Part shown: positions 15,378-22,914 of the stretch, in pieces
Numbering within the stretch: position 1 is the stretch's first letter
How the letters are laid out: every line of letters starts with the position of its first letter
From: Thunnus maccoyii
Lineage: Eukaryota; Chordata; Actinopteri; Scombriformes; Scombridae
DNA: 64,000 nt
Direction of reading: 5' to 3'
NCBI RefSeq assembly: GCF_910596095.1
Contig: NC_056548.1
Span: 17,570,651-17,634,650 of the forward strand
Position numbers and translations under genes: made by a program
Notes under the pieces: generated by a model
The model's input: the letters and a program-made list of their open reading frames with translations, nothing else
Database searches by the model: none
Told to the model about the DNA's origin: nothing

Positions 15378-15600
15378 CACTGTAAAAAAAAATACAGTGT
15401 ATTACTGCAGGCCTAGCTACATTATCAAACTGTAAAACTCACATCCTACAGCAGAATACTGTAATAATTTTTACAGCAGTTAACTGTAAAAGTAAATTAT
15501 GGTACACTGTAAAAAATGACTGTGAAATTTACATAAAAACTATGTAAAATCCCTACAGAAAAGTATTGTAAACTCAAAAACATATATTTTTTGTTTAAAG
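15378..15600. repeat. 5' terminal and sub-terminal repeats of the CACTA element
   Basis: ACTGTAAAA-like words in both orientations occur at short spacing (at about 15379, 15430, 15461, 15484, 15506), including a second full CACTGTAAAAAATGACTGTG start at 15505. In CACTA elements such arrays are the binding sites of the transposase. Confidence 0.65.
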
Positions 15601-16199
15601 TACAGTGAATTTTTGGAAACTATTAAACAGAATGTTTTTGTTATATTTACAACAACAATATGTGATTACAATCAAATTTATTTGTTAAAACTACAAATAT
15701 TGGTAACAAAAACAGAGAAATACTGTAATACTCATAACAAAACAATTTAGTTAATTTCACATGCAAATATTGTAAAAACTATAGTTTTAGTCAGTTGTTT
15801 TAAAAAATACAAATATATGTAAGTCACTTTACAAGTTTATGCTGTAATTTTAACATGATTGATAAAATGATGCAAATTGACGTAGGCCTATTTAAAATGT
15901 TTTCACAAAAAAGTTTTATTGTGAACCTGAGAGGTTACCTATCTATTTAAATATAAAAAATATACAATTTTAATAACATTGCATTTATAATTTAGGCTAT
16001 TTGTAGCATATTGTAGAGTGTGTGTATAAGACATTCAAATTATTGATATATGCAAAGTAACACTGTTCAGTCCTAATCCTTGTATGCTTTATGTTTCTTT
16101 TAGTCTTTATCATTATCATTTTCACAGGCTAAACAACCTAACAGTGCCACCTCTAACCACTTGTACTTTTACTCTCTCATTGTGCACTGAGTCCTCCTA

Positions 16200-16419
16200 A
16201 TTTTGAAATTTAAAAGTGCGCAGCTGAAGTTCGTCTCTGATTGGATAATGACGTGAGGGCGGGAGAAGCGCGAACCATTAGCCGTTAGCGTCACTAAGGA
16301 GCCAGTGTGCAGTCTGCAGAGCAGAGAACGGAGCAGAAATCTTCGGACCACTTCATTTTAAAAGATTTTAGGACAAATCTACAAGTTTTTTGGAGGGTCT
16401 GTGGCTGTTCAATTGGAAG
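16200..16419 (+). promoter_or_regulatory. Promoter-like region and non-coding first exon of the CACTA element
   Basis: A GC-richer island in AT-rich surroundings carries an inverted CCAAT box (GATTGG, about 16239-16244) next to a CRE-like TGACGTGA (16249-16256). It is followed by about 150 bp ending in a good splice donor GGAAG|GTAAGC at 16419/16420. A likely reading is a transcription start here with an untranslated first exon that joins an acceptor before the transposase ATG (CAG near 16544 or 16557) and possibly the strong acceptor TTTCTTCTTCAG at 19344-19355 before the SAM gene. That sharing is inference. Confidence 0.5.
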
Positions 16420-16582
16420 GTAAGCTTCATATTTAGGCTACTCTTTTTTCGAGACCAGACGAAAATGTGTGCTGAAAGCTAGCTAGCTAGCACCAGTCCA
16501 TATTTAAGACCAGTAACGTTAGCTCAATGTGTGATAACTTAATTCAGCTGAAAAGCACAGGCAAACATTTGAAATCCTAAAA

Positions 16583-19231
16583 ATGATCACCTGCGTCTTT
16601 TGTAAAAGCAAATTTGTTACATTAAGAGGCTATGTACTGCATTGCAGAGTACATAGGAATGAGCCTCATTGTCTTTTCAAATGTGCTGGCGCCAACTGTA
16701 GTCAAACATTTACCACTTACTCAGCTTTCAAGGGCCATTTTTATCGTGTGCACAATGCACCTGCACCGCAAGCTGCTCCTAAAGCTGTTGTTGCGGATTT
16801 AAAATGCGCAGTTTCATTATGTGCCCGCAATTTACACACGGTGAAAGAGCTAGTGTCTCACTTAAATGATCATTTTGGAGAGGGCAGGTCTGTGTCATGT
16901 CCAGTAAGTGGTTGTAAGCATGTGTTTACAAAAAAGTCATCATTTACTTCTCACATGTGTAGGAAGCATAAAGCATGCTCCCCTGATGGTATTGATGACA
17001 TGTACAAGGAAACTCGCCTTCAGCCCCCAAATGTCATTGCCAGTACAGATGATTCAGAAAGCACACATGAAGCCATGCCAACAGCTAGTGCAGCCAGTGA
17101 TATGCCAGAGAATGATAGTCAGTCTTATCTCAGAAACATGTGTCTCTTTTACCTTAAACTGCAAGGACAGCTGCTTATTCCTGCCTCTACTATACAGACT
17201 ATTGTTGAGGAGATGCAAAATGTGCACGAGTTAGGTCAAGCCTACACAATAACTAAAGTAAGTTCTTTATTAAAAAATGATATGAGCCTATCAGATGAAG
17301 CAGTCACTAAAATATGTGACTGCATTAAAGAGTCAGATTTGTTCTCTGCCTGTCATCAGGGACAATTAAGAACAACATACACCAGAAATCAGACATTCAC
17401 AAAAATGTTTAAGTACACGGAACCCCAAAAAGTGCTATTGGGAATGGATGAAAACATGACACAAAAATTTGCGTACTACATACCAGTGGCAGAAACTCTG
17501 AAGAGCTTTTTGCACTCCCAGTTATGGAGGAATGCACAGCCACAACAGTTTGGAGATCCTGATGTAGAGGTTTTTACGGATTTATATGATGGAAAAATTT
17601 TCAAATGTCACCAGTTCTTTAATGAAAACCCTGAAAGCCTCAAACTGATTTTGTATCAAGATTCATTTGAAATTGTGAATCCCCTGGGTTCTGCTAAAAA
17701 GACACACAAAGTTCTTGCAGTTTATCTTTCATTAGCAAATTTACCCATTCATTTGCGTTCAAATACTGATAATATGTTTTTAGTCTTGTTGTGTGTTGAG
17801 AATGACTTAAAGCGTTTTGGAATAGCCAAAGTTTTCTCAGAGTTGTTGGCAGATCTGAAATCCTTGGAGACAGATGGAATAAATGTAGATGGAAAAACAG
17901 TAAAAGGGGGTCTCTACTGCATTGCTGGGGATAACCTTGGTTCTCATTGCATAGGTGGGTTTACAGAGAACTTCAGCCGCTCTCAATATTTTTGCAGGTA
18001 CTGTGACATCACGAGAAGTGAGTTTGAGGCTGATCCAAATGCCTGTGGTCCTCCACGCACCCCAGAGACGTATGACACAGCTGTTGCTGATCTCCAGGCT
18101 GAAAACATCCAAGACGTCAGAGGAATAAAGGTAAACTCTATCTTTAATACCCTTGAGTCTTTTCACGTATCCCAACCTGGTCTCCCGCCTTGTTTAGGTC
18201 ATGACCTCTTTGAAGGAGTCTTGTCATATGATCTAGCACTGTACTTGAAGAACATTATAAAAATGAAAAAATGGTTCACATACTCACTCTTAAACAGGCG
18301 CATCAAACAGTTTAAGTACAAAGGATCTGAAGCACTCACAAAGCCATGTGCTGTCAAACCTGACGGAGCCAAGTTATCAGGGCAAGCCATTCAAAACTGG
18401 AACCTTCTGAGATTGCTACCAGTTTTGATTGGTGACAAAGTGCAAAATCATGAGGATGAAGTATGGCAGTTAGCTCTCCAGCTAAAAGACATTGTGGATC
18501 TTATTTGTGCTCAGAACATTTCCTTGTCCCAGATAGCATATCTTGACATTTTGATCCAAGAATATTTGGAGTTGAGAAAGATGATGTTTCCTGAAATTCA
18601 ACTCAAACCCAAGCACCACTATTTGCGCCATTATTCAGCACTGTCGTTGAAATTTGGTCCATTGAGGAGATTATGGACGCTTAGGTTTGAAAGTAAACAC
18701 AGTTATTTTAAAAGATGTGCCAGACACTTGAAAAACTTCAAAAATATTTGTCAAACATTGTCAGAGCGTCATCAGATGTATCAGGCATATCTTTTAGCTG
18801 GGCAAGAATGCAGTAAACTACTGCAAGTGAAGGACAGCTGTGCGTTTTATCCCAACCTCTACAGTGACGCTATTAAACATGCAGTCAGGGAGTTAGCCTT
18901 TTCAGAAAGCAATACCACAGTTGCCACAGATATTCAGTACAAGGGCACTGCATATAAAAAAGGACAGTTTCTTGTGTACAGAAATGATGAGTATATGGAG
19001 TTTGGTGAACTTCTACTCATCTTGATTCAAAATGACACATCTGTGTATGTTTTGATGGATATCCACAAAGGCATCTTCCTCTCAGAATACCATCTGTATT
19101 CTGTGACAAAGGACAGTCTTGGGTTACAATGTATCAACATTAATGACCTGCCTGATTTCTATCCTTTGGTATCATATATTCTTAATGGATTCCAAGTCAT
19201 TCCACTAAAACACAGTATTGTGGCAAAATAA
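16583..19231 (+). CDS. CACTA transposase (tnp2-like) with four N-terminal C2H2 zinc fingers
   Basis: A single 882-residue frame without introns. Four C2H2 fingers open it: C4-C7-H20-H24, C34-C39-H52-H57, C75-C80-H93-H97 and C106-C111-H124-H129. A low-complexity linker follows to about residue 165. The rest resembles plant and animal CACTA transposases: LYQDSFEIVNPLGS around D360, AGDNLGSHC around D450 and GHDLFEGVL around E544. These three acidic residues are the likely DDE triad of the RNase H-like core, by analogy with the D.F.P.G and LLEGV landmarks of the tnp2 family. The C-terminal part has KPKHHYLRHY and RFESKHSYFKR, typical of the same family. A Cys pair (FCRYC) follows the second Asp. 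It would cut and join the element's ends in the nucleus; the fingers may recognise the sub-terminal repeats. I am sure it is a transposase and less sure of each catalytic residue. Confidence 0.85.
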   Translation: MITCVFCKSKFVTLRGYVLHCRVHRNEPHCLFKCAGANCSQTFTTYSAFKGHFYRVHNAPAPQAAPKAVVADLKCAVSLCARNLHTVKELVSHLNDHFGEGRSVSCPVSGCKHVFTKKSSFTSHMCRKHKACSPDGIDDMYKETRLQPPNVIASTDDSESTHEAMPTASAASDMPENDSQSYLRNMCLFYLKLQGQLLIPASTIQTIVEEMQNVHELGQAYTITKVSSLLKNDMSLSDEAVTKICDCIKESDLFSACHQGQLRTTYTRNQTFTKMFKYTEPQKVLLGMDENMTQKFAYYIPVAETLKSFLHSQLWRNAQPQQFGDPDVEVFTDLYDGKIFKCHQFFNENPESLKLILYQDSFEIVNPLGSAKKTHKVLAVYLSLANLPIHLRSNTDNMFLVLLCVENDLKRFGIAKVFSELLADLKSLETDGINVDGKTVKGGLYCIAGDNLGSHCIGGFTENFSRSQYFCRYCDITRSEFEADPNACGPPRTPETYDTAVADLQAENIQDVRGIKVNSIFNTLESFHVSQPGLPPCLGHDLFEGVLSYDLALYLKNIIKMKKWFTYSLLNRRIKQFKYKGSEALTKPCAVKPDGAKLSGQAIQNWNLLRLLPVLIGDKVQNHEDEVWQLALQLKDIVDLICAQNISLSQIAYLDILIQEYLELRKMMFPEIQLKPKHHYLRHYSALSLKFGPLRRLWTLRFESKHSYFKRCARHLKNFKNICQTLSERHQMYQAYLLAGQECSKLLQVKDSCAFYPNLYSDAIKHAVRELAFSESNTTVATDIQYKGTAYKKGQFLVYRNDEYMEFGELLLILIQNDTSVYVLMDIHKGIFLSEYHLYSVTKDSLGLQCININDLPDFYPLVSYILNGFQVIPLKHSIVAK

Positions 19232-19362
19232 AGTCCAATTAAAGCTGTTAATTGGACTGTTAGTTTGACATTAATATAAGTGTTACCTGATGCATGTCCC
19301 TGTTCTGTTAAGTGTATGTACTGTATATTTTTTCTGTTCTGCATTTCTTCTTCAGTGTAAAT

Positions 19363-21830
19363 ATGAGTGACTCAGGGCGAACCTTCCTAGATGTCGCCAT
19401 CATGGAAGCCCTACCAGAACTTCAAGTAGTAAACAAAAACATCCTGGAAGAGCACTTGCAGTCCATTGGAGTCGAGACGTATGATGATCTACGCTTCGTA
19501 ACGGAGGCTGATTTGATGACAGTATTAAGACCTGTACAAGCCAGAAAGCTTCTTTCTGTTTGGAAACAGAAATGTAAGTAAAAACACCACAACACACAGC
19601 TATTCAACAGCAAAAGCAGACATGGACATTGTGTAATATTGTACAATGTGAATCATAATCTTATTTTTTTGTCATTTAAAGACCAAACTCCCGAGAACAG
19701 CTCACTATCATCTGTGGAAGCCTCACCTACCCAACTGCTGTCATCGCTCTCTGTTTCACCCCAAAGTTCATCGTCAACCTCCTCCAGCAGCCTAGGACTT
19801 GACACACAGTGGGAAGACAACTTTGAAATTCCATGGAGTAAATTTCCTGAGGAAGTGATGGATTCTTTGGAGAGGGGAAAAAGGCCAGGCCCAAAACTGA
19901 GGAGGCAAATGGTCCGGATTGTTGTGACTGAGATGATGGAAAAATGCCCCCATGTAGGTAAAAAGCATTCAACTGATGTTGCAAAGCAAATGGTGGCAAA
20001 ATATCCCAATTCTCTGCAAGATGTAATAGAGGGCGATATTGTTGGAACAGGCTACCATTCCCTTGTAAAACAGCTGCAAAACAGAATCGAAAATGTGAGG
20101 CGCACTTCAACACCCAAAATAAGAAAAAGAAAACATCAGGCTGATGACTCAGACCACACAGATGAGATCCCATTAGAAGAGAGAGCAGCAATGCAGGACA
20201 CTTACGGATGCATTAAATGGAATGTGAAATTTCTGCCCCGTGAAGAAACTCAAGAGAGCCAGCACCAAAAGAAGGAAAAACTCAAGGAGATGTTCCAACA
20301 ATCTGATGCCAATCCAGAGGAGGTAAAATGTCTAATGAAGTCCACTTTTTACACACAGCGTCAACATGTCAACCAGGGAAAAAGTATCAAAAGCCTTCGA
20401 GAGGAGTGGCCATTTTGGTTTGACGAACTTGGCATGTCGGTCCACTTCAAGGAACTCACTGGGATTGACCTCAAAGAGACATTCACGCGAAATTTGGATT
20501 TGAAGGGAAAAAGGCTTCTCAACTACATGACCACAGTTTATGTCACCAAGAGTAATAAGTTCCTTCAGACTTATGCAAGGCTTCAGAGGATGCGGGGACA
20601 GCAGAGTGGCTGCTCAGATGATGTGAAAGAGATGGTCCTGCTTCTGCTCAGCTACTTTGATGAGAAGGAGGAGTCCATGTTCTTCCATGTAGAAGATACC
20701 TGTCTGGCAGAAGAGGTCCAACTGGAGCAAGTGCCTCTGACACCTGCTGTTATTGTCTGTGGTAAGTCTGTTTCATATCTCTTTTTTTTAATTGCACTGT
20801 TTATAGAATCTGTCATGTGAGTGCAGCGCTTATTAATATAACCTGTTAAATAATTTGTTCATAGGACAGTCCTGCTATTCCTCAACAAGGTACATGCTGA
20901 GTCTGGATCGGAACCTCATCAACACAAACATCTCCTCCTTCATTTCTGCATTGTGCCTCATGTTCGGGAGCTACTTCTGTTTCAACATCCATTATCCATC
21001 TGAGCTGGCTTCAACTCTGGAGTTTCTTCAAAGGTGAGTAAACATGGCATGGCATTTCTCAGACCTGTACTTTAATTAAGCCTAAAATGGCTAAGCTACA
21101 CAAAAACTGCCTTAATAGTTCCTAGGGCCAAAAACTGCCCCATTGAAACCCATTAAAACCACTATTTTTGATCCCACGTTTATCTTGACAAAAACTAATG
21201 CATTCCTTTATGTTAAGATTTCGGTTTGGACCACAGGCTTTCAATTTGTAGTTTTTATATTTGTCCATCAGGTGGCACCACTTTTACCCATTCAAAGCAT
21301 GCCGCAAAGTTTCACACTTTTTATTGTTTTCTGGAAGAAAAGTGTGTGTGCTATTGATGTCGGATAATGTTGTGTATGTGTACTCACTAAATGCATTTAA
21401 TGGAAATTATTTAGTTTTTTTTGTATAAAAACAGCATTATGTAGAGTTATGTAAACATACTGGCATTGAAAGGGTTAAAAAGCTAAAAATATAATTAATA
21501 TTTGATATGTATATTTCAGACTCTAAAAGAGTGACATGTTTAAAGTAGAAAAAAATATCAAAATATACTATTTTTATAGCAGTTCATGGGAACAAGCCAC
21601 GTTTTGGCTTTAAAAACATCCACGAAGTAAATAAGTTAAGAACACATGAAGTTTTTTTTTTTAACTGATCAATTAAAATGCTTAATATGCTTTTATTCTA
21701 CAGGTGTTTTTTCTCGATAAACCCAGAAAAAGGAACTAAGGTGGAGAATAAAAACTCGAAGCGTCGTCTCAATCTGAACCCTCGAGTCCTCACCCTGATC
21801 CAGGACCTCTCCGATCACGAGTGGCGTTAA
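19363..21830 (+). CDS. SAM-domain protein, second gene of the CACTA element
   Basis: Four exons, 19363-19573, 19682-20761, 20865-21033 and 21704-21830, with canonical GT-AG edges and matching phases (1587 nt, 528 residues). Exon 1 encodes a sterile alpha motif: LEEHLQSIGVETYDDL, then EADLMTVLRPVQARKLL (about residues 20-68). A Ser-rich linker follows, then a conserved basic helical block (KLRRQMVRIVVTEMMEKCP), a nuclear-type basic patch KIRKRKH, and a C-terminal region of unknown fold (HDLSDHEW-like end, read as LIQDLSDHEWR). SAM domains mediate protein-protein or RNA contacts. Fish genomes are known to carry many predicted 'SAM domain-containing protein 3-like' genes of this sort. Its position inside the element suggests a transposition helper or self-regulator; that role is inference. 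The acceptor directly upstream of the ATG implies a 5' non-coding exon. Confidence 0.75.
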
Positions 21831-22740
21831 GCCTAAATATGGACTCCTTCTGTGCACTCTGACTGTTTGTTTGAGAAGAGGTACTGTTACTTTTCGCTTT
21901 GTTCAATCCACAATGTGTATTATGGTAATTAAGGCACAACGTAATTTTTGTTATTTTGCAAAAATACCTTAACAAACGTGCATTCTTATTTTGAGGGGGT
22001 ACGCCTCTCCACAGATCTGACCTGTAACTTGGCCTGTTGGCATCACGTGATTGTCTCCATGGAGATAGATAAGTTTTATGCCATACTGTGGAACATTCAG
22101 AATGTAAACAAAATTTTGATTGAATTGGGTTGTTGTTGTGTGCCTGACACTTAAACTTTGTTTGTTAAAGTTTGTTAAAAATGTCCAGATTTAAAGAGGC
22201 TAATCTTCTGGAGTATCTCAACTTGGATTCAGTCATAGTTCAAGAACCATTATATGTAGCTTCTTTGCATGTTGTATCTGTTGAAAAAAATGCATCCAGT
22301 TGTTTACAACTATTATTGCTGTTAAATAAATTTCCCAAAAGTGATATTTTTCTCTCGTCTTTTCTCAAGATGTATTTTTGCAGGTTTATACGTAAATTTT
22401 ACATTATAACTTGATTATTAAAACATAAAAACACAGCATATTTTGAAGAGATTTTATATATAATATACAGAACCATTCCATTTAAAATGCAGAGTTTTAC
22501 TGTTGTTCTACCGGTTTAAATTAGTTTTTGTTTGATATTTCCCTGTTAATTTTATCATTTATTGATGCACAATTAGCAGTTATTACATGTAAAAAATACA
22601 GGAAATGGTCTATTTATATACAACACCGTTATGTGAAATTAACAAAAAAAAAATTGTAGACTTAACAGTTTTTTAATGTGATTCAGCCGTGATTTCATTC
22701 ACTGTAAATCAATTTACATATTTCGTCTGTAAAGTTGTCT
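21831..22740. other. 3' non-coding part of the CACTA element
   Basis: AT-rich, with no supported gene. Short open frames at 21948-22154 and 22172-22414 have no recognisable domain. The last 250 bp become rich in TTTTACAG/CTGTAAA words as the 3' terminus approaches. An AATAAA at about 22325-22330 could end the transposon transcripts. Confidence 0.5.
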
Positions 22741-22914
22741 ACTGTGCTGCTGTATTTTTTACAGGAATTCTCTGGTAACCACAGCTGCCAGCGTTTTCCT
22801 GTAAAAACAACAGTTTTTTTTTTACAGTGTAGTGACACTTAAAAAATGGTAAAATGCTGGCAACTACAGCTGCCAGTAGTTTACTGTAATTTTACAGAGA
22901 CATTTGTTACAGTG
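22741..22914. repeat. Two consecutive CACTA 3' ends
   Basis: Two related segments, 22741-22830 and 22831-22914, each end TTACAGTG and each carry a CAGCTGCCAG word about 45 to 60 bp before the end (ACCACAGCTGCCAGCG and CTACAGCTGCCAGTAG). They look like 3' termini of two related CACTA elements joined head on, or one terminus duplicated. Confidence 0.6.

What the first reader, a model, noticed from the sequence alone, without database searches (positions are those of the whole stretch)
15378..22830. CACTA transposon carrying an intact transposase plus an intact SAM-domain partner gene
Seen: an 882-codon uninterrupted transposase frame, and 2.8 kb further in the same direction a four-exon gene whose exons join in phase to 528 residues with an N-terminal SAM domain, both between CACTG/CAGTG ends with sub-terminal repeats. 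Known: plant CACTA elements encode two products (such as TNPA and TNPD) where the second protein binds sub-terminal repeats. Inference: the SAM protein is the animal functional counterpart, a helper that polymerises or bridges the two ends. If general, this explains the many 'SAM domain-containing protein 3-like' predictions in fish as transposon genes.
Basis: partly seen in the sequence, partly recalled or inferred. Interest (0 to 1): 0.78.

Follow-up and report, generated by a model that had tools for sequence, protein, structure and literature searches.

The report
Jumping gene with oligomerising partner gene
This stretch of what looks like fish DNA carries a very recently mobile cut-and-paste transposon with two genes, a transposase and a partner protein whose front part looks like a SAM or, in related elements, a PB1 self-assembly domain, which suggests how animal elements of this kind may hold their ends together and where 'SAMD3-like' genes may come from.

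Summary
Both genes are real and lie in one transposon, but its left end is 15505, not 15378. The true element (15505-22829, 7,325 bp, CACTG...CAGTG) has 18 full-length copies; 9 of the 17 others are letter-identical, and all 18 have perfect 2-bp duplications. The transposase carries the CMC (CACTA) residue pattern. The partner looks integral: in all 31 diverged partner loci (of 65) with a scored transposase within 6 kb, it lies upstream on the same strand; both genes evolve under similar purifying selection. New: sister families carry a related partner core with PB1 in place of the SAM-like N-terminus (PB1 just under Pfam's cut-off). A splice-acceptor-like site precedes the partner ATG at 6 of 6 loci tested, suggesting En/Spm-like alternative splicing. 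The SAM call is soft (SAM versus helix-hairpin-helix unresolved). Best mechanism: a self-assembling partner that binds and bridges the ends; DNA binding and self-assembly are inferred.

The parts
15505..22829 (+). CACTA-type element, family A, 7,325 bp
   Evidence: 18 copies; 17 others align over this stretch at 99.95-100%
15503..15504 (.). left target-site duplication TA
   Evidence: 2-bp duplication in 18 of 18 copies: TA 14, TG 3, CA 1; third base differs in 17 of 17 others
22830..22831 (.). right target-site duplication TA
15505..15516 (+). left terminal inverted repeat, 12 bp CACTGTAAAAAA
22818..22829 (-). right terminal inverted repeat, 12 bp
16420..16421 (+). candidate 5' splice site AAG|GTAAGC upstream of the transposase ATG
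   Evidence: only site with 6 of 7 consensus matches between 15505 and the ATG; inferred, no RNA
16583..19231 (+). transposase, 882 aa, four C2H2-like finger patterns then CMC-type catalytic domain
19354..19355 (+). candidate 3' splice site (polypyrimidine-AG) 7 nt before the partner ATG
   Evidence: inferred, no RNA
19363..19573 (+). partner gene exon 1, SAM-like five-helix domain
19682..20761 (+). partner gene exon 2, conserved core
20865..21033 (+). partner gene exon 3
21704..21830 (+). partner gene exon 4 to stop
15378..15504 (+). left part of an older CACTG...CAGTG short element into which family A inserted; not part of family A
   Evidence: joined flanks match 38 uninterrupted copies at 82-91%
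22830..22914 (+). right part of the same older short element

Best explanation
An intact, very recently active and probably autonomous CACTA-type (CMC) cut-and-paste transposon, in what is probably a fish, that makes two proteins. The first is a zinc-finger DDE transposase that cuts the CACTG ends and inserts with a 2-bp, mostly TA, duplication. The second is a regular partner: a variable N-terminal oligomerisation module (SAM-like here, PB1 in sister families) on a conserved helical core. The partner most likely binds the element's end regions through the core and self-assembles through the N-terminal module, clustering the two ends for the transposase. Both proteins are probably made from one promoter, the partner by splicing from a leader donor (16420) over the transposase frame to an acceptor just before its ATG. 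Shown: element borders, copy number, intact genes, fixed gene order, purifying selection on both. Shown with sub-threshold or modest scores: the module exchange. Inferred: splicing, DNA binding, self-assembly, need for transposition.
For: 18 full-length copies, 9 of 17 others letter-identical, 18 of 18 perfect 2-bp duplications; empty site matched by 38 uninterrupted copies. Transposase: Transposase_21 best but weak (E=0.027, below cut-off); D360, D450, C471xxC474, H679xxxH683, E703 invariant in families A, B, C, the CMC pattern described in PMC12730594 (passages). Pairing: 31 of 65 diverged partner loci have a scored transposase within 6 kb, all 31 upstream on the same strand, chance expectation 0.07. 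Partner core homology SAM-type to PB1-type: hhalign E=0.0019 over 193 columns, last exon against family C tblastn E=3e-5. PB1 in 3 of 3 members, best E=0.00046, 6.8e-5 on the isolated domain. Selection: pS 0.78, pN 0.34 for the partner core, pS 0.79, pN 0.30 for the transposase. Acceptor-like site at 6 of 6 loci against 8.8% of 2,706 background ATGs.
Against: No DNA-binding domain was recognised in the partner core: its single-sequence model (pLDDT 71.8) has no meaningful structural match. hhalign gives only 14% probability despite E=0.0019, and the window's partner gave no tblastn match (E<=0.01) to the family-B locus L026. PB1 scores lie just under Pfam's cut-off and SAM well under; the best Pfam match of L027's exon 1 is not SAM but VMAP-M8 (E=0.011), and the decayed L034 exon 1 matched nothing. 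36 of 68 transposase clusters have no partner match within 6 kb; most were not examined. Sub-terminal repeats are weak in A and not the same in B, so the DNA sites such a partner would bind are unknown. No transcript data.
Confidence: 0.65

Rival explanations
1. The partner gene is a captured host gene (passenger, Pack-type transduplication) with no role in transposition.
For: Plant CACTA elements are known to capture host DNA (PMC8616336 passages). SAM-like, PB1 and the SAMD3-like core could all have host origins.
Against: Fixed order and strand in 31 of 31 pairs across families down to about 30% transposase identity; purifying selection as strong as on the transposase; the same four-exon layout, judged by eye, at 49% identity; no intact host parent seen with a recalled human SAMD3, though a gene of short exons could be missed.
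Confidence: 0.08
2. The partner is a regulator (promoter activation, self-repression or escape from silencing) rather than an end-bridging factor.
For: Maize TNPA reactivates a methylated promoter and represses the active one (PMC1636069 passage). SAM and PB1 domains also occur in chromatin and signalling complexes (recalled).
Against: In maize both element proteins are essential for transposition and TNPD stabilises TNPA on DNA (PMC1636069 passage), so the roles are not exclusive. No chromatin or enzymatic domain was found in the partner by Pfam.
Confidence: 0.22
3. Exon 1 is a helix-hairpin-helix/RAD51-N-like DNA-binding module, not SAM, and the partner works by non-specific DNA binding.
For: Foldseek matches of the exon-1 model mix SAM domains with RAD51-N, NusA, UvrC and FANCM-FAAP24 folds, all at E above 0.6.
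Against: Pfam's weak matches for two members include SAM families (SAM_TNK 0.057; SAM_EPH 0.047 and SAM_TNK 0.073) and no helix-hairpin-helix family. The equivalent position in sister families is PB1-like, a protein-protein module.
Confidence: 0.2
4. SAMD3 came first: an element took up a vertebrate SAMD3-like gene, rather than SAMD3 descending from a transposon partner.
Against: The core is very diverse inside transposons (SAM-like and PB1 clades, 65 diverged loci in one genome), and no clearly better non-transposon match was found here.
Confidence: 0.25

Closest known systems
Plant CACTA (En/Spm) with TNPA and TNPD
   Same: CACT. ends, transposase plus second product on one strand, likely alternative splicing from one unit
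   Different: 2-bp mostly TA duplication, where plant elements make 3 bp (recalled; one 3-bp example in PMC8195511 passages); partner has a SAM-like/PB1 + core architecture; transposase has N-terminal C2H2-like patterns; no strong sub-terminal repeats
SmTRC1 and animal TRC elements (DeMarco 2006, PMC1636069: abstract and passages seen)
   Same: animal CACTA relative, second product by alternative splicing; a 2-bp duplication is reported for a Hydra element placed with TRC (PMC4298943 passages)
   Different: TRC ends begin CCC. [quoted passage not shown] here the partner is a family shared by several elements
Fungal ESTA and the CMCT clade (PMC12730594: passages seen)
   Same: C(2)C and H(3-4)H motifs, TA duplications (ESTA); CA..TG ends and 2-5-bp duplications (clade)
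   Different: fungal, the ESTA families described carry a TET/JBP gene; no SAM/PB1 partner mentioned in the passages seen
MUGB domesticated plant Mutator-like genes with PB1 (PMC8616336: passages seen)
   Same: a transposon-derived protein that gained an N-terminal PB1 exon
   Different: PB1 is on the domesticated transposase-derived protein; here PB1 is on a separate partner within the element
Vertebrate SAMD3
   Same: recalled human sequence aligns to the PB1-type partner core (blastp E=2e-8 in a 3-sequence test)

Membership tests
CACTA/EnSpm (CMC) transposons | CACT-type inverted termini | tested here: met
   CACTGTAAAAAA at both ends, 12 bp; 18 copies
CACTA/EnSpm (CMC) transposons | short target-site duplication (2-5 bp in the CMCT clade) | tested here: met
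   2 bp in 18 of 18; clade range from PMC12730594 passage. Plant-type 3 bp: not met (17 of 17 others differ at base 3)
CACTA/EnSpm (CMC) transposons | D..D..C(2)C..H(3-4)H..E in the transposase | tested here: met
   invariant at 360, 450, 471/474, 679/683, 703 in 3 of 3 families aligned; which D is the first catalytic one is my assignment
CACTA/EnSpm (CMC) transposons | Transposase_21 (tnp2) profile match | tested here: inconclusive
   E=0.027, 14.1 bits against cut-off 28.6; no match at E<=1 for family B
CACTA/EnSpm (CMC) transposons | sub-terminal repeats | tested here: inconclusive
   CTGTAA enriched in A, absent in B
En/Spm-like two-product system | second gene always with the transposase | tested here: inconclusive
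   31 of 31 partner loci with a scored transposase have it upstream, same strand; of the 34 others 5 were fetched: 4 hold remnants, 1 none; 29 not checked. 36 of 68 transposase clusters have no partner match within 6 kb
En/Spm-like two-product system | both products from one transcription unit by alternative splicing | not testable with these tools
   acceptor-like site before partner ATG at 6 of 6 loci, donor at 16420; no RNA
En/Spm-like two-product system | second protein binds sub-terminal repeats | not testable with these tools
   no binding assay; core fold unrecognised
SAM domain | Pfam SAM profile above cut-off | tested here: not met
   best SAM_EPH 0.047, SAM_TNK 0.057; none for the whole protein
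SAM domain | five-helix SAM-like fold | tested here: inconclusive
   five helices, pLDDT 84.4; SAM and helix-hairpin-helix structures match alike, none at E<=0.001
PB1 domain (families B, C) | Pfam PB1 profile | tested here: inconclusive
   E=6.8e-5, 23.2 bits against cut-off 23.6, and 0.00031; 3 of 3 members match, best E 0.00046; all below the curated cut-off where bits were shown
SAMD3 orthologue | conserved host locus without transposon | tested here: inconclusive
   recalled SAMD3: 15 matches at E<=1, top 11 are partner loci, none at E<=0.001; the window gene itself sits in a transposon with 18 copies; other species not available

The most novel reading that the evidence does not exclude
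Animal CACTA elements carry a widespread partner protein, a conserved core with an exchangeable head-to-tail oligomerisation module (SAM-like or PB1), that forms a filament bridging the ends; and the vertebrate gene SAMD3, present in humans, is a domesticated copy of such a partner.
Probability: 0.42. Interest if true: 0.87.

Novelty: new variant of a known kind. Interest (0 to 1): 0.74.

Why it matters
The 2006 report on animal CACTA relatives left open what the second protein is and detected no relatives of the schistosome second proteins in other animal elements (PMC1636069 passages). Here it is a family shared by several elements with what looks like a swappable self-assembly module, so the second-protein role in an animal CACTA system becomes directly testable. 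The element's near-identical intact copies make it a good candidate for a currently mobile vertebrate CACTA transposon. If the SAMD3 link holds, a mammalian immune-cell gene (recalled) has a transposon origin, and many fish 'SAMD3-like' annotations may be transposon genes; a carp trait study reported SNPs in 'Samd3' (PMC8945855 passages), a gene model worth rechecking.

Tried and rejected
'SAM gene is alone at some loci': five partner loci without a scored transposase were fetched; four hold transposase remnants (L035, L037, L038, L042), one does not in about 8.5 kb upstream (L041+L040), and that one is a decayed copy with frame breaks and an inverted last exon, not an intact host gene. L039 was also fetched as such a locus and holds transposase pieces; it gained a scored transposase and is counted among the 31. 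Viral contigs: no relatives found with either single protein as query. PDB by sequence: no informative match for either protein, exon-1 profile or PB1-type profile, except weak zinc-finger matches to the transposase N-terminus (best E=0.0042). PB1-type N-terminus also matched the T4 Spackle family weakly (E=0.006; PDB E=0.31), taken as chance. Core structure: no meaningful match. A search of the genome with exon 1 alone did not complete. Papers, judged by title and start of abstract: SAMD3 with transposon 6; CACTA, fish and SAM domain 0; three of four sterile-alpha-motif/transposase terms 8; CACTA with PB1 domain 4 (passages of PMC8616336 read); SAM domain, DNA transposon, accessory protein and fish 2. 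None seems to describe this pairing; SAMD3 alone gave 276 papers, of which 20 were listed. Only open-licence PubMed Central papers were searched; Repbase was not available.
Full report
What is there. The window is G000:C16:17570651-17634650 of a 782-Mb genome with 54 contigs; that it is a fish is inferred, not tested. An 882-codon frame runs from 16583 to 19231. A 601-base probe (16000-16600) has 18 matches in the genome, all at 100%. I fetched the 17 others with flanks. They share sequence with the window only from about 15505 to 22829. Their lengths are 7,324-7,326 bp: 9 of 17 are letter-identical to the window copy, 2 have one substitution, and 6 differ by one base in length (substitutions in these six were not counted; one search shows at most two mismatches in any copy, flank bases included). 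All four partner exons with splice sites are identical in 17 of 17, and the transposase frame is identical in 16 of 17, the other one having one substitution. Every copy has a 2-bp duplication: TA in 14, TG in 3, CA in 1, counting the window; the third base never agrees in the 17 others. This is a burst so recent that the element is probably still mobile.

Why the left border was misread. The two flanks joined at one TA match 38 uninterrupted copies of a short repeat at 82-91% identity (40 rows, two of them the window's own halves; 40 of 112 candidates scored). The repeat itself starts CACTG at 15378 and ends CAGTG at 22914.

The transposase. Pfam gives only a sub-threshold Transposase_21 match (E=0.027), and none at E<=1 for family B. 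The alignment of families A, B and C (32 and 30% identity to A) keeps two aspartates (360, 450), C471xxC474, H679xxxH683 and E703 in 3 of 3. [quoted passage not shown] Four C2H2-like patterns precede the catalytic part in all three. I file it as a CMC/CACTA element. It does not meet the plant 3-bp duplication.

The partner is integral. Protein searches of the whole genome gave 34 partner hits beyond the 18 identical copies for the SAM type and 56 for the PB1 type. After clustering these are 23 and 42 loci. Three transposase queries (51 of 312, 51 of 319 and 90 of 176 candidates scored) give 68 clusters, the 18 identical copies left out. Of the 65 partner loci, 31 (11 SAM-type, 20 PB1-type) have a transposase within 6 kb, and in all 31 it is upstream on the same strand; 0.07 pairs are expected by chance. 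One of the 31 also has a neighbouring family-B transposase downstream. On the other side, 36 of 68 transposase clusters have no partner match within 6 kb; I did not examine most of them, so partner-less elements are not excluded. In the 23 pairs, partner type follows transposase type: all 9 SAM-type pairs were found with the family-A transposase query and all 14 PB1-type pairs with the family-C query. Nine of these 23 appear in both listings (2 SAM-type, 7 PB1-type), and in each the expected query scores higher. The other 8 of the 31 pairs (2 SAM-type, 6 PB1-type) were found only with the A-like query; of the six PB1-type ones only L039 was tested, and its transposase is nearer to families B and C.

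A swapped module. Family B (C4:30414286-30423012, 8,727 bp, CACTG...CAGTG, TA duplication; seven near-identical 3' ends, 40 of 433 candidates scored) and family C (L031, L032) carry a partner directly downstream of the transposase. Its core is related to the window's (hhalign E=0.0019 over 193 columns though with probability only 14%; last exon of family C E=3e-5), although the window's partner found nothing in the family-B locus by tblastn at E<=0.01. Its N-terminus is PB1-like (3 of 3 members, best E=0.00046; isolated domain 6.8e-5 and 0.00031, just under Pfam's cut-off). In family A the N-terminal exon is a five-helix domain (pLDDT 84.4, pTM 0.69). Its Foldseek matches mix SAM domains (SLy1, Ste50, Eph receptors) with RAD51-N and helix-hairpin-helix folds, none at E<=0.001. 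Pfam is weak too: SAM_TNK 0.057 for the window; for L027 VMAP-M8 0.011 ahead of SAM_EPH 0.047. 'SAM-like' is as far as the evidence goes. SAM and PB1 are both known as head-to-tail self-assembly modules (recalled). Finding one in place of the other at the same position is the best hint that the partner's front part serves assembly.

Selection. Between family A and L027 the partner core has pS 0.78 and pN 0.34 and the transposase pS 0.79 and pN 0.30; the SAM-like exon is faster (0.74 and 0.45). Between B and C the partner's first exon has 0.78 and 0.34 and the transposase 0.79 and 0.37. Synonymous sites are saturated, so only the direction is safe: both genes were kept by selection over the same long time. 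L027 keeps the same four-exon layout, judged by eye.

Expression. The gap between transposase stop and partner ATG is 131 bp in A. At 6 of 6 loci tested (window, L026, L027, L031, L034, L042) a pyrimidine-rich tract and YAG lie 2-11 nt before the partner ATG; 8.8% of 2,706 background ATGs reach the lowest of the six scores. A donor-like AAG|GTAAGC (6 of 7 consensus matches) lies at 16420 before the transposase ATG. I infer one promoter and alternative splicing, as in maize Spm and in schistosome SmTRC1, whose authors detected no relatives of the second proteins in other animal or fungal elements (PMC1636069, abstract and passages).

SAMD3. Against the whole genome it gives 15 matches at E<=1, none at E<=0.001; the top 11 are all PB1-type partner loci (best E=0.0017). 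No better host orthologue appeared, though a gene of many short exons could be missed. This is a lead because the query was recalled. If confirmed with real sequences, the diversity of the core inside transposons makes domestication more likely than capture.

Ends. CTGTAA in either orientation is enriched in the outer 500 bp of family A (6 sites beyond the first 15 bp, 0 of 500 shuffles) but absent in family B. Strong common sub-terminal repeats are therefore not shown.

Verdict. The PB1 exchange and the SAMD3 link go beyond it.

Noticed in passing
window 19227-19232: An AATAAA overlaps the transposase stop codon, a possible polyadenylation signal that could end the transposase transcript before the partner exons; another AATAAA lies near 22325, after the partner gene (read).
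   Followed up: no
G000:C18:5959994-6000200: Three CACTA elements of three families (B at 5.960-5.965 Mb, L027 at 5.968-5.974 Mb, family A at 5.993-6.000 Mb) lie within about 40 kb.
   Followed up: no
G000:C21:26872165-26873079, C6:34180975-34181724, C1:14820009-14820656: Family-B copies with near-identical 3' ends and no transposase match in the (capped) listings have longer open frames (476, 416, 451 aa against 335) over the partner core, as if deletions fused frames.
   Followed up: no
L031:7353-7493: A second weak copy of the PB1-type partner's last exon (tblastn E=4e-6) lies beyond the end of the family-C element.
   Followed up: no
window 15378-15504 and 22830-22914: A short CACTG...CAGTG repeat family of about 200 bp, at least 38 further copies at 82-91% identity, possibly mobilised by elements of this kind.
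   Followed up: partly
G000:C16:4230800-4233067: A transposase 97% identical over 408 residues to that of L027, in a 726-781-aa frame, but with no partner match within 6 kb, so a possible partner-less copy.
   Followed up: no
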